DNA of 20,564 nt from a virus. Positions 1 through 13,705 of this stretch are shown here, in pieces (the stretch's first letter is position 1; each line of letters begins with the position of its first letter). The position numbers and the translations under genes were made by a program. Under the pieces are notes generated by a model. The model saw only the letters and a list, made by a program, of their open reading frames with translations. It was not told the origin of the DNA and searched no databases. The DNA is taken from positions 1 through 20,564 of the IMG/VR virus record IMGVR_UViG_3300021962_007699, one strand, 5' to 3'.

Positions 1-478
1 CAGTTACTTTAGTCTCCCAGATAAAATCAACACCTTTAGACACTAAATAATCGTACCAATTTTTACCAATCTCGTGTAGATAATCTGTACCAACGTGCCA
101 TACTGGAAATAATCGCAAACCGAAATATGGTTTAATAAAATCTGGTTCTGCTTGAGGATCTGAGCATTGTACTTCCTCTGGTTTAGGGTGGAAGCGTTTG
201 AAATTGGTAATTACCTGATCAAACAATTCCATTGCTTTTTCTTCACCACAATACTTAGACATATGACCTCCGATAGCAGTGTGGTAAGTTAGTTTACCAT
301 CACTCCAACCACCAGCACCTAAAAATCCTTCCATTACTTCGGAATATTTTCGGTTGTATGGGTCTTTACCCATATCAATGATAGTGATCATTTCACCAGG
401 ATAACCATTGTCTACTAGTTTAGTAGCAGCATTAACGCCTGCTACTCCAGCTCCTACGATTACGATTTTTTCCATCAT
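1..478 (-). CDS. FAD-dependent dehydrogenase, COG2509-like (C-terminus beyond window)
   Basis: The start codon is seen and the frame stays open to base 1, so about 159 N-terminal residues are present. Residues 5-14 (IVIVGAGVAG) are a Rossmann dinucleotide-binding loop GxGxxG, with an acidic residue (D35) ending the second strand, where FAD ribose is bound. Residues 54-63 (GAGGWSDGKL) resemble the conserved GGAGxxSDGKL stretch of COG2509 FAD-utilizing dehydrogenases. There are two adjacent ATG codons (478 and 475) and either could start translation. The gene follows a 105-base gap that carries a promoter-like element, so it probably begins its own transcription unit. The substrate is unknown. 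It may be an auxiliary metabolic or protein/RNA-modifying oxidoreductase. A thioredoxin reductase-like flavoprotein is the less likely alternative. The fold is secure, the subfamily fairly so. Confidence 0.8.
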   Translation of the reverse strand, partial: MMEKIVIVGAGVAGVNAATKLVDNGYPGEMITIIDMGKDPYNRKYSEVMEGFLGAGGWSDGKLTYHTAIGGHMSKYCGEEKAMELFDQVITNFKRFHPKPEEVQCSDPQAEPDFIKPYFGLRLFPVWHVGTDYLHEIGKNWYDYLVSKGVDFIWETKVT

Positions 479-889: not shown

Positions 890-1454
890 AACGTGGTAAT
901 CTACAGCTCCAGTATGAAGCTTTAGTTTTATCTTTCTTTTGAGCACAATTGTGACGTGCGGCAAATGCTTTACGTGCTTTTGGGTTATTGATTTTTGCTC
1001 TTAAACCACCTGAACCAAAACGTACAGTTTTAATTTTCTTGGTTTTAGGGTCGCGGACATATACTTTATAAGCTTTACCACCTGAAGCAGAGCGCATTGG
1101 TTTACCAATTTTTTTCTTTTCTTCTTCGTTGATTTCTGCTTCTGTAAGTTCCATAGGAAAATCTAAAGGAACTTGAACACCTTCAACTAATGCAAAATGG
1201 CCGAGATCTGTTTCAGTTAATACCTCTAAATCATCACCTTGCACCTCAATAATATTACGAGTGTAAAGTGCGCGGGCTTCAGCCCATAAATTGAAATACT
1301 TATCCGAACCTGCACGGTATACGTGCTCTGTAAGAGGTCGTGCGTTATCTAAGTGATATTTTAATCCTTCAGAAAGGATTTCTTTTGGTGCTAAACTTTC
1401 GTTTAACACTACAGGCTTTGAAGCACTACAAGTTCCACATCCACAGCTACACAT
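843..1454 (-). CDS. phage protein with N-terminal Cys cluster and C-terminal two-Cys basic module
   Basis: The protein has 203 residues. It opens with MCSCGCGTCS, four cysteines in nine residues (C2, C4, C6, C9), which suggests metal binding. Residues 28-100 contain SEGLKYHLDN and an ETDLGHF stretch that I associate from memory with T4-like marine phages, without a known function. The C-terminus is lysine/arginine-rich: YKVYVRDPKTKKIKTVRFGS at 129-148, then a module with ARHNC (C170) and SYWSC (C184). [L/I]-x-E sites lie at 17-19 and 27-29. The start is supported by the preceding stop being only 11 bases upstream. A T-rich box, AATATTTA, lies five bases before the ATG. The 3' end overlaps the next gene. 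It is probably a virion-associated protein, by context only. Confidence 0.75.
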   Translation of the reverse strand: MCSCGCGTCSASKPVVLNESLAPKEILSEGLKYHLDNARPLTEHVYRAGSDKYFNLWAEARALYTRNIIEVQGDDLEVLTETDLGHFALVEGVQVPLDFPMELTEAEINEEEKKKIGKPMRSASGGKAYKVYVRDPKTKKIKTVRFGSGGLRAKINNPKARKAFAARHNCAQKKDKTKASYWSCRLPRYAKLLGLKSNFSGFW

Positions 1455-1467: not shown

Positions 1468-2905
1468 AAGAGGCTTTAACAAATACTGCACTATCATTAG
1501 TGCTTGATGAAGCATAGTTAATTAAATCATTAACAATTTCTTCAGGGTCATCTGAATTAGCTATAGAATTAACTACTTCTAAGGCTAAGTATTTTGATAC
1601 TCTGTAAAGTAAGTTTTGGTTAGGTGTTTTTTTAGGATTGTCATAATTTATTTCAAAATCAGCACTATCCAAACCTTCAGTTGAATCCCATAATTTTTTA
1701 AATCTAGCTTTAAATTCGGGATCGTCGTTAATTACTTGAGTTTTAATTTCTTCTGGTGGGGTAAGTTGAATATCATTATCGCTTAATGCTTTTTTAATCA
1801 TAGAATATCCTACTTTACCTCCAGCAGCTTTTTTACCTATAATCTCACCCATAAATCCAGTTAAACCACTAAAGTTTCTAAATTCAATAGCAGCATCATC
1901 AAATAAAACATAGGTTTTAGCAGCATTAGCTCTAGGATCTATACCTTTGTATTCATATCTACTTGTTTCTGCTTGGGGATCGTTAAATACCTTTAAAGAA
2001 GCATTTTTGCCTGCTTTTTTAAGTGATACTCCAATTATTTTACCTTCATTATATTTACTTAATAATAAAGAATTTATTTCTTCTAGAGTATCAGGCCATG
2101 TAATGTTCATCTCATCAGGTGATACCATCCAAATGTCAGCTGGGCTCCATTTGTTAATATCACTTATACCTACTTCTTTTAGTTTAGGTTTAACTGCTGA
2201 TTCTAAGTTCTTAACCCATTCAGATCCTCTATGTTGAATAAAAGGACCACTATAGGCTGAAGCTAGAGTATTTGCTATACTAACACTTGAAGTTAACCAT
2301 CCTGGATTAGTAAGTAATAATTCAGCAGCTCCTTCAAAGTCAGTAACATCTGTTTTAGATTTTGAGCCTTGAATTGATTTTTCTGTAATATCTTCTTCAG
2401 TAATATTTCCTGATGATGAATATCTAATAGCATTAGCTATGGCTTGGGCTGATTCTGCTTTAGCAGTTAATTCAGCTCCACCTCTCATACCCCCACCTCC
2501 ACCAAATTCAGCAGTTTTCTTTAAGTTAGATGTAGTGATTTTATTACCATCTTTATCTACTAAAGTAATAGGGGTAGTAATTTGAGTTTTACCTTCTAAT
2601 TGACCAATAACTTCTTCTTTATTATCAACTATAAATGTTTCTCCAGAATTTAATTCTAATTCTTCATCATTTTGAATCTTTTTTATTAGAATTTCAATTC
2701 TTGGGGTTTTAACACCACCTGGTAAGGTTGCGTCTTTACTTAATTCGGTGGGGGACAAAGCTGTTTCTTCAATTGTTACTTCTTCTCCTAGGATTTTGCT
2801 TAATAGTGATTCAAGTAAAAGAATATCCTGTTCATTTTTCATGTCAGGATATCCTTTATCGAATTTGTAAGCGAACTTACGAAAGAATTTATCAAAAACG
2901 TCCAT
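1466..2905 (-). CDS. uncharacterised phage protein, possible PD-(D/E)XK-like fold
   Basis: The protein has 479 residues. The N-terminus (MDVFDKFFRKFAYKFDKGYP) is amphipathic and is followed by LLLESLLSKILGEE. A short glycine run (GGGGGMRGG, about 135-143) links to the main domain at about 200-400. That domain has HRGSEWVKNLESA (E229), KWSPADIWMVSP (D257) and GKIIGVSLKKAGK (K296). The spacing E - D - SLK, with predicted helix then strands, is what a divergent restriction-endonuclease fold would show, but I cannot confirm homology. FRNFSGLTGFMGEIIGKKA follows at about 347-365. It overlaps the upstream gene by one base (TAATG), so the two are translationally coupled. The function is unknown. Its place among proteins with capsid-targeting-like leaders makes a virion role plausible. 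Confidence 0.8.
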   Translation of the reverse strand: MDVFDKFFRKFAYKFDKGYPDMKNEQDILLLESLLSKILGEEVTIEETALSPTELSKDATLPGGVKTPRIEILIKKIQNDEELELNSGETFIVDNKEEVIGQLEGKTQITTPITLVDKDGNKITTSNLKKTAEFGGGGGMRGGAELTAKAESAQAIANAIRYSSSGNITEEDITEKSIQGSKSKTDVTDFEGAAELLLTNPGWLTSSVSIANTLASAYSGPFIQHRGSEWVKNLESAVKPKLKEVGISDINKWSPADIWMVSPDEMNITWPDTLEEINSLLLSKYNEGKIIGVSLKKAGKNASLKVFNDPQAETSRYEYKGIDPRANAAKTYVLFDDAAIEFRNFSGLTGFMGEIIGKKAAGGKVGYSMIKKALSDNDIQLTPPEEIKTQVINDDPEFKARFKKLWDSTEGLDSADFEINYDNPKKTPNQNLLYRVSKYLALEVVNSIANSDDPEEIVNDLINYASSSTNDSAVFVKAS

Positions 2906-3435
2906 TAAACTTCTGTATCTACTGTTACATCTACTTCTTCAGCTCCACCACCTCCAGCAGTATCACCGCCTCCAGGTGCAGCAGCTTCAGAACCACCTCC
3001 ACTATCACTACCTGGGAAGGAACCTCCACCACCTGTTGAATATGAAGCTTCATCTTGTTCACCCATAATGTTAGGGGCACCATGTCTCAAAATACGAGAA
3101 ATTGCTTGTTCACAATTTTCTTGTTCATTTAGATTGAGTAAATAATATTTTTTACCTTCTACTTCAGCAATCCAACTTCTAGTATTGTATACTAAATAAA
3201 AGTTTTCACCGTTTTTAAGGTTGATGCGGAATGTAGTTGGTTTTGGAGCTACCCAATCAATTGAAGCTAAGAAAACATCGAATTGTGGGCCGAGTAGGTC
3301 TACAATGATGTCCTTTAGTTCTGGGAATTTGGTGAGTTCGTCGTATTTTTCAGCTGTAATGTCTACAAGCTTTTTCTCACCATAAACCGTTTTGACTAAA
3401 AGTTTAATTTTTTCTCTTAGTTCCGATTTTTTCAT
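2905..3435 (-). CDS. phage protein with MKKSEL leader and glycine-rich tail, function unknown
   Basis: The protein has 176 residues. The first residues, MKKSELREKIKLLVKTV, nearly match the leader of the 311-residue protein starting at 6164 (MKKSELKEMIKAAFLAE). Both contain L-x-E at 6-8. A compact middle domain (about 25-115) has TTFRINLKNGENFYLVY and EVEGKKYYLLNLNEQENCE, a beta-rich pattern. From about residue 124 the chain is low-complexity, rich in Gly, Ser, Ala and acidic residues, and ends VDVTVDTEV. The stop and start codons are shared with both neighbours (TAATG at 3435 and 2905), indicating coupled translation. No enzyme motif was recognised. A minor virion or internal-head protein is possible by context. 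Confidence 0.75.
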   Translation of the reverse strand: MKKSELREKIKLLVKTVYGEKKLVDITAEKYDELTKFPELKDIIVDLLGPQFDVFLASIDWVAPKPTTFRINLKNGENFYLVYNTRSWIAEVEGKKYYLLNLNEQENCEQAISRILRHGAPNIMGEQDEASYSTGGGGSFPGSDSGGGSEAAAPGGGDTAGGGGAEEVDVTVDTEV

Positions 3436-4712
3436 TATCTAGCTTGTTGTTTTTTAGTTGGGCCTTTACCACCACCTTTTGCTTTGTAGTTAGCTACAGC
3501 ACCTGCAATAGCAGTAGCTGCTTTTTTAGATTTACCTTGTTTTTCTAATTTACCAACAAGTTTTTCGAATGATTCGTCTACTGATTCAGAGGTTGTTTTA
3601 CCTGGGAGGATTACAAGTCTTTTGGTTTTTGCACCATTCCAAGTTCTCCCATCACCACCGTCTTTAAATTCAAATTGGGGGAAACCTTTTTGTATTTGGT
3701 CATAGAATCCAATTGCTTTATCACCTACTAAGTCGGCTACGACTCTATCGTCTTCAGAGTATAGAAAAACGTCTTTTGAATCCATAGTTCCATCAGCAGG
3801 TTTTTTATTTAATACTACTTCACCTTTTACTAATTCGACATCAGCACCCATTTTTTTAAACCCTAAATATAGTTGTTTAGCTACATTTTTAAGTTCTAAA
3901 TTACTAGCTGCACTTTCGTCTAATTCAGCTGTTGCTTTTTTAAAGTAACCTTTTGGTAAACCTTCTTCAACACCTACATTATCTAAAGTGCCTGACATAT
4001 CAATAACGTCTACAGCAGCATCGATTTCTGGTTCTTTGATTTCAAAATCAAGATAGTGTTTAGCACCTACTAAGTTATTTTTAGCTGTGATAACTTTAGC
4101 TTGCCACCAATGTGGAAAATCAACCTCACCTTTACCTTCAAACTCATCTACCATTTGGTAAAGTTCCATAGCGTATTTTCCAATACGGTATAGATCAGCT
4201 TTTAGCATGTGTGGTTCGTTGTCTTGGTGACCTAAATCTAGATCTTCTTCTAAACTTGGATCTTCGTAATCAGCATCTTCTAAATCAACTTCAAAGTCTT
4301 TAAGAGAAACTACAATAGTTTGACCACCCACGTTTACGGCTACAGAGCCGTTTCTTATAAGATTTTGGTGATCTTCGTCTGTTAAAACAACAGCTTGTTT
4401 TAGCTCATCGATAACGCCTCTACCTTTTAAGATATCGGCTTTGGTCACTTTACCATCACCTGTTAAGTCAGGAAATTCTTTTTTTTCTGGGATTGGTTGG
4501 CTTAAAGCAGCTTTAACCATTTCTCTAAGTTTATTTTGTTCCATGTCTTGTTCAGCTAATTTTTTGGCTAGGTTTGTTGCGCGACCATACATTACTTTCT
4601 CAGCGTCAGCACCATATTTTTTAACTAAGTTGCGCTTATTTTTCTTCATACTCATGATGAGATCTTCGCGCTTGGCTAATTCTGCTTTTGAAAGTTTTTT
4701 TTCGTTGAGCAT
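3435..4712 (-). CDS. phage protein with EF-hand-like loop and duplicated leader motif
   Basis: The protein has 425 residues. Residues 19-54 (KKYGADAEKVMYGRATNLAK and flanks) form a basic helical segment I recognise from T4-like marine phage proteins of unknown function. Residues 60-71 (NKLREMVKAALS) repeat the leader motif seen at the N-terminus of the 311-residue protein (SELKEMIKAAFL). Residues 82-93 (DLTGDGKVTKAD) fit a dockerin/EF-hand calcium loop, with D82, T84, D86 and D93 in ligand positions. The middle is acidic. The C-terminus from about 385 is lysine-rich (KLEKQGKSKKAATAIAGAVA then GGGKGPTKKQQAR). The start at 4712 follows the previous stop by seven bases in an A-rich, SD-less context. 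The function is unknown. It is likely virion-associated. Confidence 0.78.
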   Translation of the reverse strand: MLNEKKLSKAELAKREDLIMSMKKNKRNLVKKYGADAEKVMYGRATNLAKKLAEQDMEQNKLREMVKAALSQPIPEKKEFPDLTGDGKVTKADILKGRGVIDELKQAVVLTDEDHQNLIRNGSVAVNVGGQTIVVSLKDFEVDLEDADYEDPSLEEDLDLGHQDNEPHMLKADLYRIGKYAMELYQMVDEFEGKGEVDFPHWWQAKVITAKNNLVGAKHYLDFEIKEPEIDAAVDVIDMSGTLDNVGVEEGLPKGYFKKATAELDESAASNLELKNVAKQLYLGFKKMGADVELVKGEVVLNKKPADGTMDSKDVFLYSEDDRVVADLVGDKAIGFYDQIQKGFPQFEFKDGGDGRTWNGAKTKRLVILPGKTTSESVDESFEKLVGKLEKQGKSKKAATAIAGAVANYKAKGGGKGPTKKQQAR

Positions 4713-4719
4713 TTTTTAT

Positions 4720-5037
4720 TTAGTCAAGTGTAACGTCAGCAAACCACTTGATATCACCACTTGGTAATAATTCAATTTTGATATCAGGATTACCTTCTAA
4801 CGTAGCTTTACCACCAATTTCATCTAAGTAAGATGAAAGAGCAATAAACTGATCAGCATCTTCATATTGTTCGCTATCACCATATTCATCTTTTTCCCAT
4901 ACACCTGTTGTAGGGCCTTCAGCGTCTTGAGGTACGCTAAAATTATACAAAGCTGAGATGTAATCCTCAAATTGAGAGATGTTTTCTTTTAGTAAGCGAC
5001 CTTCAGCGAGGTATTTTCTTAAATCGAAGTTATCCAT
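4720..5037 (-). CDS. small acidic phage protein with leader-like N-terminus
   Basis: The protein has 105 residues and is strongly acidic after the N-terminus. It starts MDNFDLRKYLAEGRLLKEN, an amphipathic helix with L-A-E (10-12) and L-K-E (16-18), the kind of site cut by T4-type prohead protease. The MDxFD opening is shared with the 173-residue protein starting at 7695 (MDKFDTSRWMKNNLL). The body has EKDEYGDSEQYEDADQFIAL and ends with a short beta-like segment, IKIELLPSGDIKWFADVTLD. No known domain was recognised. It sits six bases after the histone H1-like gene and seven before the EF-hand protein gene, so the three probably share a transcript. Confidence 0.7.
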   Translation of the reverse strand: MDNFDLRKYLAEGRLLKENISQFEDYISALYNFSVPQDAEGPTTGVWEKDEYGDSEQYEDADQFIALSSYLDEIGGKATLEGNPDIKIELLPSGDIKWFADVTLD

Positions 5038-5043
5038 TTTATT

Positions 5044-5214
5044 TTATTTTTTGTCTTCAGCAATTGAAGCAGCTCTGTAGTCTTTAGTGAGTTTTTTAAT
5101 TTCACCTAAAGCTTTACGAGCACGTCCGTGTGCTGCTTTTGATGTTTTTGAATGTTCAGTTGAGAACTCGACCCATAATTCGGCCATTTGCTTATAAATT
5201 TCGTTTGATTCCAT
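5044..5214 (-). CDS. histone H1-like (Hc1-type) small DNA-binding protein
   Basis: This 56-residue gene is easy to miss because it is short. It starts with ATG at 5214 and ends with TAA at 5046-5044. The protein begins MESNEIYKQMAELWVEFSTE and contains SKAAHGRARKALGEIKKLTK at about 24-43, then KDYRAAS. The pattern K-AA-x-RARKAL-x-E-[IL]KKL matches the core of the Hc1/histone H1-like family (Pfam Hc1, PF07432), whose bacterial members bind and compact DNA. It fits exactly between the 105-residue gene (six bases) and the 311-residue gene (14 bases), with the same codon style. The likely role is DNA binding, in the host cell or packaged with phage DNA. The latter is inference. Confidence 0.72.
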   Translation of the reverse strand: MESNEIYKQMAELWVEFSTEHSKTSKAAHGRARKALGEIKKLTKDYRAASIAEDKK

Positions 5215-5228
5215 GTTTATAGATTTTA

Positions 5229-6164
5229 TTATTTAATTTTGTTCCACATTGGGAATATTGATTCGTTTAAAGATTCTTTAAGACCAGCCATTTTAGCAAC
5301 ATTTGGAAGGGCTTCGAGAGCATCGCTATTGTTTTTGAGGAAGTTTTGAGCCCAATCCATGCCTGGGGTGATATCGTCACGGAATTGTTTTTTAACTTCC
5401 ATGTAGTCTTCGATACTCATTTTTTCAATTTCATCTTTCTTTCTTACTGTGTCTTTGTGGTCATGAGAGCCATTTCCACCACCATTATAAAAAATCCAAT
5501 CTTTAATCCCATTAAGAATTTCTATGTCTTTTTTCTTTTGTTCTTCAGCTTTCTTTTTACCACCGCCAAATAAGCCAAATAATTCGTTTACTTCTTCTTC
5601 AAGTCCTAAACCAGCTTCCATTTCTGCAGTTGATTTTTCTGAGTCGATGTTTACATCAAGCTCACCATCACCTTCTTCAATACCTTGTGGGTTTGGAGCA
5701 TCACCTGCAACTACGAAGTCACGAGTAAAGAAAGTGATTGTATTACCAACCTGAGTGATGAACTTTTGGTCACCAAACTCTTCGGCTTCAGCTCTTAAAG
5801 TTTCAAGGGTGTCTAAGATTTTTCTTGTAGCACTAGGAAGTGAAGATAAAGAAACAATTTTCTTATCTACTACGATTGAATCGTTAGCTGTTTCTACTTC
5901 TTCGTCGTCAGCAGATAAGTCAGTATCAGCAGCATCGATTTCTTCGCCAGCGTCTATATCAACGTCTTCTTCGTCTTTAACTTTAACTTTAACTTTAACG
6001 TCTTCTTCTTCAGCTTCGGCTACTACTTCTTCTTCAGAAAGACGAGCTAATAACTCGTCGAGGTCTTCTTCACCTTCAGCCATATATGGATCTACTACGT
6101 CGCCGTCAGCTTTTTCAGCTAAGAAAGCGGCTTTGATCATTTCTTTTAATTCAGATTTTTTCAT
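5229..6164 (-). CDS. acidic phage protein with MKKSEL leader, function unknown
   Basis: The protein has 311 residues. The leader MKKSELKEMIKAAFLAEKA has L-x-E sites at 6-8 and 15-17. Residues 30-95 are extremely acidic, with an alternating KVKVKVK insert (DVKVKVKVKDEEDVDIDAGE). A folded segment follows at about 98-155 (SLPSATRKILDTLETLRAEA then FITQVGNTITFFTRDFVV). A second low-complexity region with GGGKKKAEEQKKKD precedes a C-terminal helical part ending GLKESLNESIFPMWNKIK. The long acidic stretch resembles scaffold/core or internal-head proteins in style, but no homology is proven. The gene has a 33-base upstream gap with a CATATTTA box 25 bases before the ATG. Confidence 0.75.
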   Translation of the reverse strand: MKKSELKEMIKAAFLAEKADGDVVDPYMAEGEEDLDELLARLSEEEVVAEAEEEDVKVKVKVKDEEDVDIDAGEEIDAADTDLSADDEEVETANDSIVVDKKIVSLSSLPSATRKILDTLETLRAEAEEFGDQKFITQVGNTITFFTRDFVVAGDAPNPQGIEEGDGELDVNIDSEKSTAEMEAGLGLEEEVNELFGLFGGGKKKAEEQKKKDIEILNGIKDWIFYNGGGNGSHDHKDTVRKKDEIEKMSIEDYMEVKKQFRDDITPGMDWAQNFLKNNSDALEALPNVAKMAGLKESLNESIFPMWNKIK

Positions 6165-6189
6165 TGCAATGTATATTGAGTATATGTGA

Positions 6190-6197
6190 TAAATATG
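6190..6197 (-). promoter_or_regulatory. CATATTTA box upstream of the acidic protein gene
   Basis: Coding-strand CATATTTA, then TC, lies 25 bases before the ATG at 6164, in the 33-base gap after the upstream stop. It shares the ATATTTA core with the other boxes, but no TTTG lies at the expected upstream distance, so this is weak. Confidence 0.2.
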
Positions 6198-6488
6198 TTA
6201 TTTTTTGTGATACGTACCCTTTTTGTACTTAGCTTTGTTAGTATTGGAAACAAATTGTTTTCCTTTACGAGACGCAGCTGCTTTTTTGCGAGATGTTTTA
6301 GCTCTTTCTGCTTTAGTTAGTGATTGGGCTTTTTTCTTAGGCAAACAACGTGTTGTAGCATCGCCTTTTTTCATTGTACCACAAGGGCCGGTAATATTAC
6401 CAGCCGTATCAATTCTCACCCACTCTTCTTTTTTGAACCAATCGCGGAGAGATTCTTGAATTATTTCTTGTAGACGTTCGTGTGTCAT
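6198..6488 (-). CDS. small lysine-rich phage protein with two conserved cysteines
   Basis: The protein has 96 residues and is very basic. It opens with an amphipathic helix, MTHERLQEIIQESLRDWFKK, holding L-Q-E (6-8) and I-Q-E (10-12). The rest is a compact module: WVRIDTAGNITGPCGTMKKG (C36), TTRCLPKKKAQSLTKAERAK (C48), then a Lys/Arg-rich tail with KGKQFVSNTNKAKYKKGTYH. The CGT-x-RCLP-x-KA pattern is one I have seen in proteins of T4-like phages and cannot assign a function to. The composition suggests nucleic-acid binding. The start overlaps the preceding stop by four bases (ATGA at 6488-6485). Confidence 0.75.
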   Translation of the reverse strand: MTHERLQEIIQESLRDWFKKEEWVRIDTAGNITGPCGTMKKGDATTRCLPKKKAQSLTKAERAKTSRKKAAASRKGKQFVSNTNKAKYKKGTYHKK

Positions 6489-7174
6489 CCTTTCATTTGA
6501 CCTTTACATACCTTAACAGCACGACCTGAAAGGTAGGCGGATGATTTTTCACCAGCAGCCATTCTCTTTTTAAGGTATGCTTTACCTTTTGGGCAAAGTT
6601 CCTCGTTTAGGTTTTCTCCTAATTGTTTTGTTTCGTCAATGTCTTGAACAATTTTCATTAAAATTTTGTTCATTACGTCTGGTGTAAGGCCTTTAGTTTT
6701 ACCGTCTGGGAATTCAGGATCGTCTTTTAAGTATTTTGAGTAGCCTTCAACTTCTTGAATTTCAGCTTCTGGGTCTAAATTTTTATAAACGTCTCTAACT
6801 GCTTTTTTTAAGATTTCAATAGCTTCACCTTTATCAGCTTTTGATGTAAAGAATTTAGCTGCGATATCACGAGCCATTCTTTCAATTTTATCTTTAGGAA
6901 CTAACATCTTTTCGTCTAATTCCTCTTTAGGTGGAACTAAAGTTTCATAATCGTCCATTGATAATACACCTCTTGCTTTTACAGCTTCGATAGCGCGTTC
7001 AGCTACCTCGTGTAAATCCATATCATCGCCAGCGTCTTCTCTAGCGAATTCAAGTAAACGGATAAATAAAGGAACGTCTACGGCAATGATGTCTGGGATA
7101 TCGTTTGATACATTGGTTTCGGCTTCACCAATTCCTTTTAAAAAGAATTCTTTAATTTTTTGTAAATCTTCCAT
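6485..7174 (-). CDS. phage protein with acidic helical body and two-Cys basic C-terminal module
   Basis: The protein has 229 residues. The N-terminus MEDLQKIKEFFLKGIGEAET is amphipathic, with I-x-E sites at 7-9 and 15-17. Residues 25-180 are mostly helical and acidic, with EYGxS-type order-breaking segments (VEGYSKYLKDDPEFPDGKTK). The C-terminal 37 residues form a separate basic module, ELCPKGKAYLKKRMAAGEKS (C194) to RAVKVCKGQMKG (C223), which looks like a portable small domain because the linker before it is acidic. The gene sits between TAATG (7174, with the upstream gene) and ATGA (6488, with the downstream gene) overlaps, so it is translationally coupled on both sides. The function is unknown. 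Confidence 0.75.
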   Translation of the reverse strand: MEDLQKIKEFFLKGIGEAETNVSNDIPDIIAVDVPLFIRLLEFAREDAGDDMDLHEVAERAIEAVKARGVLSMDDYETLVPPKEELDEKMLVPKDKIERMARDIAAKFFTSKADKGEAIEILKKAVRDVYKNLDPEAEIQEVEGYSKYLKDDPEFPDGKTKGLTPDVMNKILMKIVQDIDETKQLGENLNEELCPKGKAYLKKRMAAGEKSSAYLSGRAVKVCKGQMKG

Positions 7175-7695
7175 TATTTCATCATTTTAGATAATTCGGG
7201 ATTCTTTGAAGCGTAATAACGGAACAATGCTTTACCTAAAGTACCTTTAACTTTATCAGAAACATATTGTTTAAATGGTAAACCTTCTAAATCAGCGTCA
7301 ATTAAAGCATTAAGCTCTTTTTGCATTTCACTTGATTTATTAGCTTGACCCTCATATTTGTCAGCAATAGTTTTAATGCTTGCTTTATGTTTATCTAAGA
7401 TTTCTCTTGCTTTAGCTGTAGCAGATGAAAGAGCTTCGGGTGAGTCTGGGTAGTAATCGTCTTTAACTTCATTTACAGATTCTTCTATGCCTAATTCAGC
7501 ATGAAGAACTTCCATAAAATTATTATAGTTGTGAGTGCCATAATCTTCTCTTAAGATTTTAGCTACAGCTTTTGCAAAATCAGAGTATGAAGTATCCTCA
7601 GGAATTACTTTTCCTAACTCGTTGGCGAGGCTTTCGCTTAGGTGCCTGTTCAATAGATTGTTCTTCATCCACCTGCTCGTGTCGAATTTGTCCAT
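7174..7695 (-). CDS. helical phage protein of unknown function
   Basis: The protein has 173 residues. It opens MDKFDTSRWMKNNLLNRHLS, with L-S-E at 19-21, like the leader of the 105-residue protein at 5037. The body is nearly all helical by composition (ATAKAREILDKHKASIKTIA, SEMQKELNALIDADLEGLPF) and it ends YYASKNPELSKMMK. Its 5' end overlaps the 3' end of the 98-residue gene by 98 bases in another frame. Both starts look genuine because each protein begins with a well-formed N-terminus. No catalytic motif was seen. Confidence 0.72.
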   Translation of the reverse strand: MDKFDTSRWMKNNLLNRHLSESLANELGKVIPEDTSYSDFAKAVAKILREDYGTHNYNNFMEVLHAELGIEESVNEVKDDYYPDSPEALSSATAKAREILDKHKASIKTIADKYEGQANKSSEMQKELNALIDADLEGLPFKQYVSDKVKGTLGKALFRYYASKNPELSKMMK

Positions 7696-7894
7696 CAGTA
7701 TTTTTTTTAGTTTCGTTTACAATTTCTTCGATAACGGGTTCTAAAGAAGGTTCACCACTCATTTTTACTTTAATTTGTGGTTTTTCTTCTTTTTGTTCTT
7801 CTACTTGTGGAGGATCTACTTGAACTTGGTATGTGTCTTTAACATACTTGGGTCCACCATACATTCTTCTATATTCTCCTAAGTTAAATTTCAT
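7598..7894 (-). CDS. small charged phage protein, function unknown
   Basis: The protein has 98 residues. The N-terminus MKFNLGEYRRMYGGPKYVKD looks folded. From about residue 28 the chain is proline/charge-rich and probably disordered (VEEQKEEKPQIKVK), ending with the basic tail APKRKPRQRVRKSNS. The last 98 bases overlap the start of the downstream 173-residue gene. The start is the first ATG after a promoter-like element, with only five bases between the -7-like box and the ATG. The gene could instead end earlier if the overlap were a sequencing frameshift, but the neighbour's independent start argues against that. The function is unknown. Confidence 0.6.
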   Translation of the reverse strand: MKFNLGEYRRMYGGPKYVKDTYQVQVDPPQVEEQKEEKPQIKVKMSGEPSLEPVIEEIVNETKKNTDGQIRHEQVDEEQSIEQAPKRKPRQRVRKSNS

Positions 7895-7899
7895 ATATA

Positions 7900-7930
7900 T
7901 AAATATTAAAAAATTTACTATTGTTTCAAA
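7900..7930 (-). promoter_or_regulatory. Bacteroidota-type promoter candidate heading the small-protein block
   Basis: Coding-strand TTTG (7930-7927) is followed after exactly 19 bases by AATATTTA (7907-7900). The ATG at 7894 lies five bases further. A start site at the usual distance from the -7 box would fall within about two bases of the ATG, predicting a nearly leaderless message. The -33 part lies inside the 3' end of the upstream gene. Confidence 0.45.
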
Positions 7931-8487
7931 GATTCGAGGTATTCAATAGTTTCTTGCATACTTTTATAAGCTAGTTCTTTATTTATACCACCTTTCCAAT
8001 TTTCAACATCACCAGCTTCAGTTACAAATCCTTGATTTGATGATGTAAGCATATCTTCAGCCCAACTTTTATATTCCTGAATGAAATCTTCTACAGCATT
8101 ATTAACCATTGCTTTTTTCCAGTCATCCCATAAACCATTTAGTTTTAGTTCGTGTTCAAAATCAACATGACAATTAAAACAACGTCTATAGTTGTTCCAA
8201 AATAATTTATCGTTATTACTTTTCATTACTTTTTTACAAGAAGGACAAAACATTGGCATAGCTAATGATTTTGCTTTATCTAATTTAGTAATGTTTTGTT
8301 TAATACCATCCTTAATAGTCCACTCACGACCACTTTCAGTCCAAATATCACCTTCTTGACGGTGTTCTTGTTTTTTAGAATAACCAGTACCTACGGTTGT
8401 TTTTTCTCCGTATTTACCAGTCATAATATTTCTTAGTCGTTGTACGTCTTTTTCAACAAATTGTTTTTTTAAAACGTTATCTTTCAT
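7918..8487 (-). CDS. zinc-ribbon phage protein, function unknown
   Basis: The protein has 189 residues. Two CxxC pairs, CPSC (81-84) and CFNC (103-106), set 18 residues apart, form a probable four-cysteine zinc ribbon. It is flanked by KSLAMPMF and an acidic HVDFEHELK stretch. Upstream of the ribbon, GDIWTESGREWTIKDGIKQN at about 47-66 is conserved in T4-like phage proteins as I remember them, without a known role. The C-terminal third is helical and acidic (VNNAVEDFIQEYKSWAEDML). The start overlaps the preceding stop by four bases (ATGA at 8487-8484), coupling it to the four-module enzyme gene. It could bind DNA or act as a small structural protein. Confidence 0.78.
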   Translation of the reverse strand: MKDNVLKKQFVEKDVQRLRNIMTGKYGEKTTVGTGYSKKQEHRQEGDIWTESGREWTIKDGIKQNITKLDKAKSLAMPMFCPSCKKVMKSNNDKLFWNNYRRCFNCHVDFEHELKLNGLWDDWKKAMVNNAVEDFIQEYKSWAEDMLTSSNQGFVTEAGDVENWKGGINKELAYKSMQETIEYLESLKQ

Positions 8488-10718
8488 AAACCTAATTCTT
8501 TTAAATCTTGTATAACCTGACTTGCTGATTTATAGTGGATACCTATACCACCTTTAGATTTCCAAGCATCAATTGTATCTTGTCTATCATCAATCAAAAT
8601 GTAATTTTGATGTGAAAATTTAGCTTTGTTTTTAGCAGCTGCAAAATAGATTTTTTTCATATTGGGTAAACGCTTAACCCAATCTAATTTACCTAAAATT
8701 GATTCATTAACGTCTCTATCATAACGTAATTCTTCTGGGAAGTCGAAATTTACTGCTGGGGCTGTTAGCACATATGGGTTGTATGGAGCAATAAAGTCCC
8801 ATAATTCTTTTCCACCTGGTTGCCAGTCTAAGTTAGCCCAAAATGATTCTTCACTAATATCTTTATCTTTTAGACCTTGTCTAAATGCTTTCCAAAATTC
8901 TTTTTTTTCTTGAACATCAGCATGGTGAGTTTCTTTACCAGTTAATTCTTTGTATCCTTTATCAAAGTCAACTAATACACCATCCATGTCACAAAATATA
9001 ACGGGCTTTTTCAATAGTTTTTTTTCTTCAGTTTCTTCAAATAAGGGTAAAGCTAATGCTTTATTTCGTTTTCTCCAAAGATTAAGTATTTCTTCTTTAT
9101 CTTCGGCACTAATAGGTTGAGTGGCTAAATAAGCTGCTATTACGTCTTTAAATGGACGTCTTGATTTTTTAGCTTTGTAATATAAACCTTGAAGCATTGC
9201 ATCTACTTCTTTTTCTAATTTAAAGTATTCTTTTTTAGGAAGTAGATCCATTTTGATCATCTTACGAAGCATAGAATCATCAGATAATTGCTTTCCACTG
9301 CGTACATTAGCACCATCTTGAGTTAAATGTTCAAGTTCGTGTCTAATAACGTCTTTTAAATCGAATGAAACTGTTTGCCAGTCTATATCTTTTGGAATTT
9401 TAAAGCGAACTGAAAGAAGTGGTTGGATTTCATCTCCCTCATCATCAAATCCAGCATTTGCACCTCCATCTACTGTATAGGTGTCTTCTGTATATGTAGC
9501 CTGAACATTAAAATCAAATTCAAAATCATCAGATATAATATCTGAGTCTTCATCTTCAGGGCCTATTGTAAATGTTTCATCTACTACTTTTCTATTTACA
9601 TCATATCCATCTTTTATTACCCCAAAGGCTAAACGTGACAGTTGGTTTGTAAATTTATCGTAGCGACCTTCATTTAAAGGTTCTTCATCTAAACGAGCTA
9701 ATTCATAAGCAAAAGCATTTAGACCGAATGGGTCTTTTACTTTTTTTTCTTGTAAACTATCAGTCCAATTTCTAAAAGCGATATTACCTTCCTCGTATGC
9801 TTCTCTTTCAATACTATCTAAGTGGTCGTCTTCAGTAGTGTTTGTAGTAGTAATATTACCTAATCTATCTTCTAGATTTTGGATGTGATGTATCATTTCA
9901 TGTGCGTAAGAACGCACAATATCTTTGGGATGACGCCCTTGAGTATATAGGACAATGAGTTGCTCGTTAGGATCGTAGTATGCGGTTTTACCGAAGAAAT
10001 CTTGTGAATTGTCTACGTCACTATCTATAACTTTAAGGCCAGGTAATGGTTCAATTTTGTAACCTTTATCAATCATGTGTTTAGTTAATTGTCCACATTT
10101 TTCAATAAGATCTACTGTGTTAGTATGAGCCATATGTTCTTTGAGAATAGATTTATCTACAATGTTGTAAATTTCTTCTTTTTCACCTGGTGGTACTTCA
10201 TCTGGGAGGAATGTAAGGAATGCTTCTTTATCTCCCTTTGATGCTGCTTTACGAGCGTTAGTTCCACTAACTTCAGGGTCTGAAGTGGAAATTACTTTAA
10301 CTTCTAGGTTAGGGTATTTGTCTTCTACCCCTTTAGTTCTAGCAGCAACGTCTTGTAAATCATCTTGTCTACCTTCACGATACCCAATTACAAAATAAAC
10401 TTCTTCTGTTGGGTGATCTTTAGCATATCTTAATACATCGCGAATAGGTTGAGATGAAGGGACAATTTTAACTTTAGGACCTAATACTTCTGTGTAAATA
10501 TCCCAAATAGCTAGGGATGCTTCTTGGGTAAGACCATCTCGAACACCACCACCTACATAGATAATAAATTCATCAATTTCAGGAAATTCTTTTAATGCTT
10601 TTTTTACTAAGTTAAAGTGTCCTTTAATAGGAGGTTTAAAACCACCACCATATACAGCAGTGACTCTTCTATCATCTTCTAATAAAGGGTGGATAAGTTC
10701 TTTAACTAATTGATTCAC
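8484..10718 (-). CDS. four-module protein: nucleotidyltransferase, two HExxH modules, NT5C-type HAD phosphatase
   Basis: The protein has 744 residues and starts with GTG at 10718 (GTGA overlap with the kinase gene). A leader (MNQLVKELIHPLLED, L-L-E at 12-14) precedes a cytidylyltransferase-like domain at about 18-195. That domain has VYGGGFKPPIKGHF (22-35, the GxFxPxHxGH-type nucleotide site) and EVSGTNARKA (149-158, equivalent to the ISSTxIR motif). Residues 200-345 carry YAHEMIHHIQ (HExxH at 273-277) with a following DSIEREAYEE that could give the third zinc ligand. Residues 350-550 carry VIRHELEHLTQ (HExxH at 460-464) and a later KEVDAMLQGLYYKAKK. Residues 571-744 are a HAD fold of the 5'(3')-deoxyribonucleotidase type: CDMDGVLVDFD (576-586), LTAP (651-654), AAKNKAKF and LIDDRQDTIDAW (709-719). 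The key residues of all modules are present. The substrates are unknown. Confidence 0.85.
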   Translation of the reverse strand: MNQLVKELIHPLLEDDRRVTAVYGGGFKPPIKGHFNLVKKALKEFPEIDEFIIYVGGGVRDGLTQEASLAIWDIYTEVLGPKVKIVPSSQPIRDVLRYAKDHPTEEVYFVIGYREGRQDDLQDVAARTKGVEDKYPNLEVKVISTSDPEVSGTNARKAASKGDKEAFLTFLPDEVPPGEKEEIYNIVDKSILKEHMAHTNTVDLIEKCGQLTKHMIDKGYKIEPLPGLKVIDSDVDNSQDFFGKTAYYDPNEQLIVLYTQGRHPKDIVRSYAHEMIHHIQNLEDRLGNITTTNTTEDDHLDSIEREAYEEGNIAFRNWTDSLQEKKVKDPFGLNAFAYELARLDEEPLNEGRYDKFTNQLSRLAFGVIKDGYDVNRKVVDETFTIGPEDEDSDIISDDFEFDFNVQATYTEDTYTVDGGANAGFDDEGDEIQPLLSVRFKIPKDIDWQTVSFDLKDVIRHELEHLTQDGANVRSGKQLSDDSMLRKMIKMDLLPKKEYFKLEKEVDAMLQGLYYKAKKSRRPFKDVIAAYLATQPISAEDKEEILNLWRKRNKALALPLFEETEEKKLLKKPVIFCDMDGVLVDFDKGYKELTGKETHHADVQEKKEFWKAFRQGLKDKDISEESFWANLDWQPGGKELWDFIAPYNPYVLTAPAVNFDFPEELRYDRDVNESILGKLDWVKRLPNMKKIYFAAAKNKAKFSHQNYILIDDRQDTIDAWKSKGGIGIHYKSASQVIQDLKELGL

Positions 10719-11512
10719 GATGCTAAGAATGACTTTAATTTTTGTTGTGCTTCTTCAGCGCTTACTACTTGTTGAACTGCTTTAGTAACGTTTTCTTTTG
10801 ACATTAAATCACGAACTTCATCTTCAAGTTTTTCTCTTTGAGCAATAGAGCGTGCTTGTTCTTTTTCTGATTTTTCTTTAGTATCAGTAGGAATATAAGG
10901 TTTAATATATTGATCAATAATATCCTCTAAGTCTCTAGCGTCTACTAATTTTTTATCTTTTGTAGTAGCAACAAAATTATTACCAAATAAATCTAAATAT
11001 GGAATAAAATTTTTAGTTACATTAGCCCATGTTTGCATTACAATAGAAGGCATTAAGCTTCTATCTTCACCTCCTGAGCGGTCAAATCTATCTTCGTTTT
11101 TACGTAATGATTTTTCTAATGAAGCATAAACGTAAACCATAAACACTTCATAGCCAGCAGCTTCTAATTTTTCTTTTAGTTGTTTTGTTTTATTATATGA
11201 AGCAGCAGTACCATCGATTACGATATCTTCTCTATTTTGAATTTCTTGATCTAATTTTTGTTGATATGATTTTTGAGCAGCTTGCATTGCTTTGGCAGCT
11301 TTACTTCTACCTTCAGAGTCTGCTTTTTTTAGATCTAATGATACACCTGATGCTTTTAGATTAGTAATAAAGTCATCATCAATGTTTAATACTTTGAGTC
11401 CACTGATAATGTCACCTACAATAGATGATTTACCAGCGCCTGGGGCACCAGCTAAAATAATAGCTTTAGGAGCACCTTGTGCTTCTTTTAAAAGTTCCAT
11501 AAGTGAAATCAT
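10715..11512 (-). CDS. P-loop kinase (zeta-toxin/AAA_33-like)
   Basis: The protein has 265 residues. The short leader MISLMELLKEAQ (L-K-E at 8-10) directly precedes KAIILAGAPGAGKSSIVGDI, a strand plus Walker A (GxxxxGKS, 22-29). NIDDDFI at about 43-49 follows and may bind the acceptor. REDIVIDGTAA at about 94-104 is the Walker B-like strand, and KNEDRFDRSGGEDRSL looks like the arginine-rich lid. This order matches small-molecule/polynucleotide kinases of the zeta-toxin and AAA_33 type. The C-terminal 50 residues are a charged coiled-coil-like tail. The gene overlaps the four-module gene by four bases, so the two enzymes are made together. Possible substrates are nucleosides, NAD precursors or nucleic-acid ends. 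A UDP-sugar toxin role is less likely because no antitoxin is seen. Confidence 0.82.
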   Translation of the reverse strand: MISLMELLKEAQGAPKAIILAGAPGAGKSSIVGDIISGLKVLNIDDDFITNLKASGVSLDLKKADSEGRSKAAKAMQAAQKSYQQKLDQEIQNREDIVIDGTAASYNKTKQLKEKLEAAGYEVFMVYVYASLEKSLRKNEDRFDRSGGEDRSLMPSIVMQTWANVTKNFIPYLDLFGNNFVATTKDKKLVDARDLEDIIDQYIKPYIPTDTKEKSEKEQARSIAQREKLEDEVRDLMSKENVTKAVQQVVSAEEAQQKLKSFLAS

Positions 11513-13239: not shown

Positions 13240-13270
13240 TGAATATACGAAATAAATTTCGCTACTCAAA
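13240..13270 (-). promoter_or_regulatory. Bacteroidota-type promoter candidate for primase and nuclease
   Basis: Coding-strand TTTG (13270-13267) is followed after exactly 19 bases by TATATTCA (13247-13240), six of eight matches to TAnnTTTG if N is counted as matching. The ATG at 13234 is five bases beyond the box, again predicting a near-leaderless message. The spacer holds a 14-base inverted repeat. Confidence 0.45.
13248..13261. repeat. 14-base inverted repeat in the promoter spacer
   Basis: CGAAAT-AA-ATTTCG is a perfect inverted repeat in the 27-base gap between the GIY-YIG-like gene and the primase gene. It lies between the -33-like and -7-like boxes, so an operator role is possible. 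The two-base loop and lack of a following T-run make it a poor intrinsic terminator. Confidence 0.3.
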
Positions 13271-13705
13271 GTCTTTTCTAAAAAACTTACCTAAAATGTT
13301 GTCGTTAAAATATTCATTTGGTTTTTGTAATACCTCATAAATGAATAATGCTTTTGTTTCCTCGTAAGTTAATAACTTTTTATTTGGAACACACGTTAAA
13401 ATTTCACGTCTAAAATCTGATTGTTTACCTTCTTTAATTAGCGCCATAATTTCTTTATGGGAACCATAGTAGGTTTTCCAATCCGATTCTGAAATAACTT
13501 GTTTGTAGGTTGGTCTACGTCCTTTTTCACCTTCGTAAATAGCCAAATCTTTTTTAGTTAATTTAGCTTTACGAGTAAATTGTAGGACTTTTTTTCCTAT
13601 ATAAATTTTTCCTGAAGGTTTATGGATAACTCTGTAAACAAAACCAAAGGTTTGAGGAGGTAAATCCTCAATCGAAGTTATTTCTTCGCCTTTATAATAC
13701 CACAT
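13262..13705 (-). CDS. GIY-YIG-like protein, SegE-type
   Basis: The protein has 147 residues. GFVYRVIHKPSGKIYIGKK (21-39) is the GIY...YIG pair of strands, in the degenerate form GFVY...YIG. After an insert with KLTKKDLAIYEGEKGRRPTY comes DWKTYYGSHKEI (75-86), as in T4 SegE-like proteins where W-x-x-Y-x-GS follows the YIG strand. FRREILTCVPNK at about 98-109 supplies the conserved arginine, and ALFIYEVLQKPNEYFN carries the expected glutamate. The enzyme would nick or cut DNA. It could be a free-standing homing endonuclease or a domesticated phage nuclease. It lies between the tail block and the primase. It is free-standing, and no intron is visible. The start at 13705 is SD-less (ACACTAAAAT before ATG). 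Confidence 0.75.
   Translation of the reverse strand: MWYYKGEEITSIEDLPPQTFGFVYRVIHKPSGKIYIGKKVLQFTRKAKLTKKDLAIYEGEKGRRPTYKQVISESDWKTYYGSHKEIMALIKEGKQSDFRREILTCVPNKKLLTYEETKALFIYEVLQKPNEYFNDNILGKFFRKDFE

What the first reader, a model, noticed from the sequence alone, without database searches (positions are those of the whole stretch)
2905..11512. Shared leader helices with [L/I]-x-E sites suggest a set of capsid-packaged proteins
Otherwise unrelated proteins begin with short amphipathic helices carrying [L/I]-x-E: MKKSELRE, MKKSELKE...FLAE, NKLREMVKAAL (internal), MDNFDLRKYLAE, MDKFD...HLSE, MTHERLQEIIQE, MEDLQKIKE, MISLMELLKE and MNQLVKELIHPLLE. In T4, capsid-targeting sequences of internal proteins and Alt are cut by the gp21 protease at this type of site. 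In the kinase and the four-module protein the site falls just before the first domain strand, as expected for a removable leader. Caution: the 257-residue nuclease also has an I-L-E near its start.
Basis: partly seen in the sequence, partly recalled or inferred. Interest (0 to 1): 0.75.

Follow-up and report, generated by a model that had tools for sequence, protein, structure and literature searches.

The report
Swappable capsid-delivery leaders on phage proteins
Many unrelated proteins of this marine T4-type phage lineage begin with a few short, interchangeable leader peptides ending in a head-protease cutting motif, which very likely load them into the virus head so they can be injected into the next host; this extends a trick known from phage T4 to about a hundred new protein families.

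Summary
The window is a fragment of a T4-type phage related to the cultured Flavobacterium phage immuto (160 kb). The syntenic gene block there lies between the tail fibres and the terminase/gp20/gp21/gp23 head genes. [L/I]-x-E within residues 2-25 occurs in 15/19 immuto block genes versus 39/181 elsewhere (p=9e-7), and in 66/113 versus 113/430 in five relatives (p=3e-10). [LI]xD, [LI]xQ and [VMF]xE are not enriched.

At least three leader families (A MKKSxLKxxIKxEL; B MDNFDLRKYLAEGKLLKE; C KKQILSEQFRRMQKLAGIITE) sit on unrelated bodies. Homologous bodies swap leaders, and 81/103 replacement N-termini keep [LI]xE (31% expected). A T4 gp21-type (S77) protease with the catalytic triad conserved is present in immuto and many relatives.

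One example fails: MKKSELRE of the 176-aa protein is not a conserved site. The nuclease ILE belongs to a conserved N-terminal block. The 744-aa protein carries [LI]xE in its inter-domain linkers, suggesting a polyprotein.

Best explanation: T4-style capsid-targeting propeptides, removed by the prohead protease, on injected effectors. Packaging and cutting remain inferred. Novelty: new variant of a known kind.

The parts
11483..11512 (-). Leader (type D, MISLMELLKE|A) of the zeta-toxin/nucleotide-kinase-like protein (gene 10715-11512)
   Evidence: L8 and E10 invariant in 33/33 aligned unique leaders while P2 takes 7 different residues; P1' is A/V/G; [LI]xE in 47/48 homologue N-termini; residues 5-11 are the only pLDDT<50 segment, core strand starts at 16; Zeta_toxin Pfam 2e-17, zeta-toxin fold best in PDB
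10677..10718 (-). Leader MNQLVKELIHPLLE|D of the four-module 744-aa protein (gene 8484-10718)
   Evidence: [LI]xE in 30/40 homologue N-termini; first strand at residue 19
10110..10169 (-). Linker 1 of the 744-aa protein, between the adenylyltransferase-like module and the first metalloprotease-like (HEMIH) module; site LKE194|H
   Evidence: pLDDT<50 at residues 192-202; homologues insert whole cassettes here, commonly after [LI]xE
9666..9755 (-). Linker 2 of the 744-aa protein, sites LQE324, LDE345, LNE350|G
   Evidence: pLDDT<50 at 322-351; [LI]xE 4.25 per 100 aa in this linker across homologues versus 0.70 in domains
9015..9038 (-). Linker 3 of the 744-aa protein, site LFE561|E, before the 5'-nucleotidase (HAD) module
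   Evidence: pLDDT<50 at 561-568; in phage immuto this module is a separate gene with its own leader MKKVMGNLADLLLEE|SDF
7633..7695 (-). Leader (B-like, MDKFDTSRWMKNNLLNRHLSE|S) of the 173-aa protein (gene 7174-7695)
   Evidence: 15/16 homologues keep [LI]xE, e.g. MSFNVHKWNKRRYLAEAGLLQES; one homologous body carries the 229-aa protein's leader type instead (MEDIKKIQEFFSKPLNE, L015)
7124..7174 (-). Leader MEDLQKIKEFFLKGIGE|A of the 229-aa protein (gene 6485-7174)
   Evidence: 10/13 homologues keep [LI]xE; in some homologues the leader is replaced by an A-type leader (MKKSDFVKLITETLSSKLNEE)
6488..6601 (-). Basic C-terminal cassette of the 229-aa protein, right after LNE191
   Evidence: a homologous cassette follows a short N-terminal leader in its own gene, MDKIKKLVKE|KLCKKGEAYRKRRMAAGEKSSAYLSGRAVKVCKGQM (L139); sites listed
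6453..6488 (-). Leader MTHERLQEIIQE|S of the basic 96-aa protein (gene 6198-6488)
   Evidence: 8/9 homologues keep [LI]xE with variable P2 (EII[QTSKD]ESLRDWF)
6114..6164 (-). Leader (type A, MKKSELKEMIKAAFLAE|K) of the acidic 311-aa protein (gene 5229-6164)
   Evidence: 11/11 homologues keep [LI]xE, most as [FY][LM][AS]E; type A sits on 21 unrelated body clusters
4984..5037 (-). Leader (type B, MDNFDLRKYLAE|GRLLKE|N) of the 105-aa protein (gene 4720-5037)
   Evidence: 17/17; homologous body carries leader C in L261 (62% identity); type B on 77 unrelated body clusters
4503..4535 (-). Internal A-like helix NKLREMVKAAL of the 425-aa protein (gene 3435-4712); weak candidate
   Evidence: LRE/LKE kept in the six printed homologues, just before the conserved DLTGDGKVTKADIL module; tandem leaders (C then A, B then A) occur in relatives
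1398..1454 (-).
   Evidence: 30/31 homologues keep [LI]xE; distant ones add an N-terminal leader MERLRKLIKEVLS
2905..3435 (-).
   Evidence: [LI]xE in only 20/44 homologues; most of the failures are this family

Best explanation
The block encodes cargo proteins of the phage head. Each cargo has a short N-terminal amphipathic propeptide (one of several interchangeable leader families) that docks it to the prohead core. During head maturation the gp21-type S77 protease cuts after the Glu of [L/I]-x-E, the leader is released, and the mature protein stays in the head with the DNA and is delivered into the next host at infection. Shown here: shared leaders on unrelated bodies, leader exchange between homologous bodies, selective retention of exactly [LI]xE, concentration of such genes next to the head genes and inside the gp20-gp21-gp23 cluster, and an S77 protease with its triad intact in the same genomes. 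Inferred from T4: docking to the core, cutting, packaging and ejection. Inferred for the 744-aa protein: it is a polyprotein cut into separate enzymes at its linkers.
For: Enrichment: immuto block 15/19 and head core 7/7 versus 39/181 other genes; five relatives 66/113 versus 113/430, with sliding-window peaks at the head-adjacent block in the 166-kb relative and in immuto. Specificity: [LI]xE is 2.85-fold over internal windows in block N-termini, [LI]xD 0.66, [LI]xQ 0.93, [VMF]xE 0.85; in other genes [LI]xE is 0.94. Modularity: type B 165 proteins/77 body clusters, C 39/24, A 33/21; mixed-leader clusters and leader swaps. Retention: 81/103 homologues with unrelated or diverged leaders keep [LI]xE versus 0.31 expected. 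Leader C: a scan ending at LAG and without a start codon found it at the N-terminus in every assessable case, followed by [LI]xE in 35 of 37. Protease. Phage restriction: one leader-B hit in 84,980 bacterial/archaeal genomes versus at least 119 stretches in viral contigs. T4 controls in the same format: IPII/IPIII MKTYQEFIAE|A, gp24 MAKINELLRE|S (the gp24 cut position is from own knowledge); IP propeptides are the capsid-targeting sequence, residues 4 and 7 target, 8 and 10 process, Asp at 10 blocks processing (PMC9026906).
Against: No proteomics was found for any relative; neither packaging nor cutting was observed. The window itself (20.6 kb) holds no gp21, as expected for a fragment. Some leader genes lie far from the head cluster (immuto 1.8, 24.6, 25.1, 60 kb). 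Single proteins cannot be assigned on the motif alone, since about a quarter of all genes have it by chance. In two of the five relatives the enrichment alone is not significant. In the 744-aa family the first site is sometimes lost (LVDG). P1' is not always a small residue.
Confidence: 0.87

Rival explanations
1. The leaders are docking tags for head or another virion part (neck, tail, portal) but are not cut: the conserved Glu serves binding, not proteolysis.
For: Some leaders stay partly conserved beyond the predicted cut (type B GKLLKE), so the stretch after the first site also matters. No cleavage data.
Against: Conservation of P3 [LI] and P1 E with free P2 is the documented gp21 rule; Asp is not accepted in place of Glu, as in T4 where Asp at position 10 blocks processing but not targeting (PMC9026906). 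Junctions of leader swaps lie at or just after the motif.
Confidence: 0.07
2. The leaders are regulatory or host-directed N-terminal helices (for example degrons, membrane anchors, translation elements) unrelated to the head.
For: They are short, amphipathic and Lys/Glu rich; [LI]xK is also raised 1.8-fold in block N-termini.
Against: The same leaders occur on small genes inside the gp20-gp21-gp23 cluster (immuto gp072 MKKSQIVKAVQEVLEEM, gp069 MENNFDIHKWQAKFLKES). They are nearly confined to phages and found with S77 proteases in both ~150-kb leader-C genomes.
Confidence: 0.04
3. The motif is a chance product of Glu- and Leu-rich N-termini.
For: A quarter of all phage genes carry [LI]xE near the start, and one reader example (176 aa) is such a chance case.
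Against: Shuffles, same-genome controls, near-miss motifs and homologue retention all exclude this for the set.
Confidence: 0.02

Closest known systems
T4 / T-even internal proteins IPI-III and Alt with capsid-targeting sequences (CTS), cut by gp21
   Same: Short N-terminal propeptide ending in [L/I]-x-E, shared by proteins of unrelated sequence; gp21-type S77 protease; related gene order gp20-core proteins-gp21-gp22-gp23; T4 leader EFIAE|A resembles type B KYLAE|G and FLAE of type A; T4 gp24 ELLRE|S resembles type D. Signal-based discovery of many IPs and their anti-restriction role is published for T-even phages (PMC3012670, PMC12373910).
   Different: Here there are at least three unrelated, interchangeable leader families in one lineage instead of one; about a hundred body clusters; cargo includes enzymes (kinase, adenylyltransferase, metalloprotease-like, nucleotidase); double sites (LAE...LLKE), tandem leaders, and cassettes joined by [LI]xE. 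Homology of the leaders to those of T4 was not tested and is not claimed.
phiKZ / SPN3US head propeptides cut by gp175 / gp245
   Same: Many ejected head proteins with propeptides removed by an S77-related prohead protease (PMC9026906, PMC5694885).
   Different: Different lineage; here one set of leaders is reused on unrelated proteins and swapped between them.
Polyvalent proteins (Iyer et al. 2017, PMC5512222)
   Same: The 744-aa protein strings together effector-type enzyme modules (zincin-like motifs; the immuto homologue adds a nucleotidyltransferase-like N-terminus, by eye only), as in proteins predicted to be packaged and injected.
   Different: The paper proposes release by embedded peptidases or an assemblin-like C-terminal domain; here the linkers carry prohead-protease-type sites and modules also occur as separate leader-bearing genes.

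Membership tests
T4-type capsid-targeted internal proteins | Short (10-19 aa) N-terminal propeptide shared by otherwise unrelated proteins | tested here: met
T4-type capsid-targeted internal proteins | Leader ends in [L/I]-x-E, selectively conserved | tested here: met
   not met for the 176-aa protein
T4-type capsid-targeted internal proteins | gp21-type S77 prohead protease with His/Ser/Asp triad in the genome | tested here: met
   In relatives: PF03420 in immuto, 6 further relatives, 13 of 25 leader-bearing contigs; H85, S140, D168 columns invariant. Not on the 20.6-kb window fragment itself.
T4-type capsid-targeted internal proteins | T4-type head (gp20, gp23) in the genome | tested here: met
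   Gp23 PF07068 283 bits in immuto; terL, gp20 and MCP neighbours in relatives
T4-type capsid-targeted internal proteins | Aromatic targeting residues as in T4 IPIII (positions 4 and 7) | tested here: inconclusive
   Type B has F4 and Y/F9 (before LAE), but these positions were partly fixed by the search pattern; types A and C lack this layout
T4-type capsid-targeted internal proteins | Protein present in the mature virion, cut after [LI]xE | not testable with these tools
   needs virion proteomics
T4-type capsid-targeted internal proteins | Ejection into the host | not testable with these tools
   needs an infection assay
Polyvalent proteins (744-aa protein) | Two or more effector-type catalytic domains in one phage polypeptide near virion genes | tested here: met
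   adenylyltransferase fold, 5'-nucleotidase, two HExxH-like zincin motifs read from sequence (HEMIH, HELEH), head-adjacent block. The metalloprotease assignment itself rests on motifs only.

The most novel reading that the evidence does not exclude
The four-module protein and its relatives are packaged polyproteins that the prohead protease cuts inside the capsid into separate enzymes. Cassettes of [LI]xE + module move freely between independent leader-bearing genes and fusion proteins, so this lineage has a plug-in system for loading effectors into heads.
Probability: 0.5. Interest if true: 0.85.

Novelty: new variant of a known kind. Interest (0 to 1): 0.73.

Why it matters
If true, injected phage proteins of a large, almost uncultured marine clade can be read straight from sequence. 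A defined set of leaders marks the ejectome, where anti-restriction and host-takeover functions are expected by analogy with T-even IPs. The interchangeable leaders would be ready-made tags for studying protein loading into non-T4 heads, and the polyprotein form would be a new way to deliver enzyme sets. Phage immuto and its Flavobacterium host have been cultured, so all of it is testable at once.

Tried and rejected
Chance origin (rejected). The 176-aa MKKSELRE as a leader (rejected: 20/44 homologues). Leaders as a general property of all phage genes (rejected). Finding a cultured phage with published virion proteomics that bears leader A, B or C: only the four immuto records matched B and C, and nothing reliable matched A; the paper searches found no immuto proteome. 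Naming the cargo bodies by Pfam and PHROGs: nearly all 72 representatives gave nothing (4 Pfam families, one member each: DUF5661, DUF5872, a below-cutoff Tox-ART-HYD1, and NPV_P10). Placing the MCP cut in this lineage: the stretch near the T4 cut reads VSE/VTE/VVE rather than [LI]xE, while LLE and ILE sites lie upstream, so the exact MCP cut stays open.
Full report
WHAT THE WINDOW IS. The window is one 20,564-base viral contig. Genes run on the minus strand: tail proteins (20.6-13.7 kb), a 147-aa protein, DnaG-like primase and exonuclease, then a block of small unknown proteins down to 0.6 kb. The nearest cultured phage is Flavobacterium phage vB_FspM_immuto (160,410 bp; the 744-aa protein matches over 97% of its length, 36% identity). 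In immuto the syntenic block (101.3-118.9 kb) lies between tail fibres and terL-gp20-...-gp21 protease-...-major capsid protein. Homologous anchors connect the two phages.

IS THE MOTIF MORE THAN CHANCE? Window block: 11/15 proteins have [LI]xE in residues 2-25; shuffles of the same proteins give 3.9 +/- 1.7. Immuto, where gene starts come from the deposited annotation and the block was defined by synteny, not by the motif: 15/19 in the block and 7/7 in the head core versus 39/181 in all other genes (Fisher p = 9e-7). In those other genes the frequency is about that of internal windows. Five further relatives: 66/113 versus 113/430 (p = 3e-10), with one simple gene caller for all; two of the five are not significant alone. 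A 15-gene sliding window peaks at the head-adjacent block: 13/15 in the 166-kb relative, 11/15 in immuto. The effect is specific: in 140 distinct block N-termini [LI]xE is 2.85-fold over internal windows and [LI]xE followed by A/G/S/N/T 3.7-fold, while [LI]xD is 0.66, [LI]xQ 0.93, [VMF]xE 0.85 and [AG]xE 0.51. [LI]xK is 1.8, which reflects the Lys-rich helices.

LEADER FAMILIES AND SWAPS. Immuto N-termini show repeated leaders on unrelated genes: MKKSELVKLIKEEL, MKKSQLREIIRKEL, MKKSQLRQIIKEAL (type A); MENFDLKKFLVENKLTTNSKILKE and MADNFNLRSFLTENKLTKNAQLLKE (type B); MKKQILSEQF(R/K)RMQ(K/F)LAGIITES on two genes 86 kb apart (type C). Unanchored searches in ten records (eight relatives, the window and immuto) found types B and C only at the N-terminus (type A was searched anchored). 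Across the fetched loci: type B 165 proteins with 77 body clusters, type C 39 with 24, type A 33 with 21. Because the type-B loci were fetched with a pattern that includes a start codon and LAE, its first ten columns and its N-terminal position are partly imposed; the next column (G/N/S in 162 of 165) is not. The type-C scan had no start codon and ended at LAG; every assessable match was N-terminal and 35 of 37 continue with [LI]xE. Homologous bodies carry different leaders. The window 105-aa body with leader B occurs with leader C in L261 (62% identity). Immuto hyp095 (A) matches a leader-B protein (70% identity over 174 aa). Immuto tiaS082 and the CPLPTQN-type bodies swap B with short D leaders (MxLLxLLxE). 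Of 103 distinct homologue N-termini outside types A-C (unrelated leaders or diverged variants), 81 keep [LI]xE, against 31% expected from equal-length internal windows; most failures belong to the family of the window's 176-aa protein.

PROTEIN-BY-PROTEIN VERDICT. Convincing: kinase, 105, 311, 173, 229, 96 aa. Likely: 744 aa and the unlisted 203 aa. The kinase is the clearest: in 33 aligned leaders of the form MISLxxLLxE, L8 and E10 never change, while the residue between them takes seven values. The AlphaFold model puts residues 4-11 in a low-confidence helix apart from the core, whose first strand starts at 16. Weak: the internal helix of the 425-aa protein, though tandem leaders (C then A, B then A) in relatives give it a plausible reading. 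Rejected: 176 aa. Not leaders: 189, 479, 56 aa; the exonuclease site is part of a conserved N-terminal block.

THE PROTEASE. Immuto gp070 is a Peptidase_S77 (PF03420, 120 bits versus cut-off 27; PHROG head maturation protease). The same search finds it in six relatives holding the block or head region, and PF03420 in 13 of 25 other leader-bearing contigs, including both of about 150 kb; the negative contigs are records of 36-64 kb. Aligned with T4 gp21 the columns H85, S140 and D168 are invariant. I identify these with the published His/Ser/Asp triad from the alignment and own knowledge; the paper read here confirms a three-residue triad but does not print the T4 numbers. gp20-gp21-gp23 order with small core genes between is kept. 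Two of those small core genes in immuto carry type A and B-like leaders themselves, which ties the leaders to the prohead.

THE 744-aa PROTEIN. Four modules: adenylyltransferase fold, two zincin-like HExxH stretches (sequence motif only), and a 5'-nucleotidase. Across its aligned homologues [LI]xE followed by A/G/S/N/T occurs 1.16 times per 100 aa in leader and linkers versus 0.08 in domains. The segments of pLDDT < 50 include 192-202, 322-351 and 561-568, holding sites 194, 324, 345, 350 and 561. Homologues insert cassettes (DUF5872-like, zinc ribbon) in linker 1, commonly right after [LI]xE (e.g. VLKE|GDPKTGTGKKPKG), and the same cassette exists as a separate gene behind a leader (MIKLIDILLE|KDPKTGTGKKPKG). 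In immuto the nucleotidase is a separate gene with its own leader. A prohead-protease-cut polyprotein fits best, but this step is inferred.

COMPARISON WITH THE KNOWN. In T4, IP propeptides of 10-19 residues target proteins to the core and are cut by gp21 at L/I-x-E; Asp in place of Glu blocks processing, not targeting (PMC9026906). T-even internal proteins are a diverse set with only the CTS conserved (PMC3012670), and IP1-3 block type IV restriction enzymes (PMC12373910). The present set works in the same way as far as sequence can show. It differs in the number and exchangeability of leader families, the number of cargo families, enzyme cargo and cassette fusions. Hence: new variant of a known kind. 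I found no description of these leaders in the papers searched; that library lacks most subscription journals.

LIMITS. No virion data. Gene starts in IMG/VR loci come from a simple caller. Sequences within families are related, so counts are not independent events. The leader-type definitions are hand-made patterns. P1' preference and the MCP cut in this lineage are not established.

Noticed in passing
window 13723-15456: 577-aa tail-type protein with a long GTSGTSGSSG / SGLSGINGTSG repeat, making the local GC 0.445 against about 0.34 elsewhere.
   Followed up: no
window 13262-13705: Annotated 'NAD synthetase' in immuto and PHROG 447, but it also matches homing endonuclease PHROGs; the name is doubtful.
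   Followed up: no
window 2-478: Start of a FAD-dependent oxidoreductase-like protein (by eye) cut by the contig end, next to the cargo block.
   Followed up: no
L147, L270, L193, L166, L261 and others: A short mobile linker KE(T/S/A)xxPQ(S/A)GKAAPYGSGYxxxK recurs behind several different cassettes, often starting right after LKE; a second recurrent linker is KDPFGLNxYARELAxGLEE. Both look like standard spacers between packaged modules.
   Followed up: partly
L142:12869-13501, L275:2854-3753: Leader-bearing proteins with ADP-ribosyltransferase-like starts (LYHFT / VVYHGSS; Tox-ART-HYD1 E=6e-4, below cut-off, for the first only), reminiscent of the packaged ART Alt of T4.
   Followed up: partly
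NC_055915 18.6-37.0 kb (L002): Immuto carries queC/D/E/F-like genes and dpdA (7-deazaguanine in DNA), so modification-dependent restriction may be a target of its injected proteins.
   Followed up: no
gp21 termini in L105, L113, L104, L089: Conserved ILTE|ILCA-like (also VNE) tail in the S77 protease plus N-terminal LIE|T and LTE|G, possible self-cleavage sites as proposed for T4 gp21.
   Followed up: no
L280 (JAAEPJ010000459.1): The only leader-B hit among bacterial/archaeal genomes, on a 14-kb contig of a metagenome-assembled genome; possibly a phage contig binned with it.
   Followed up: no
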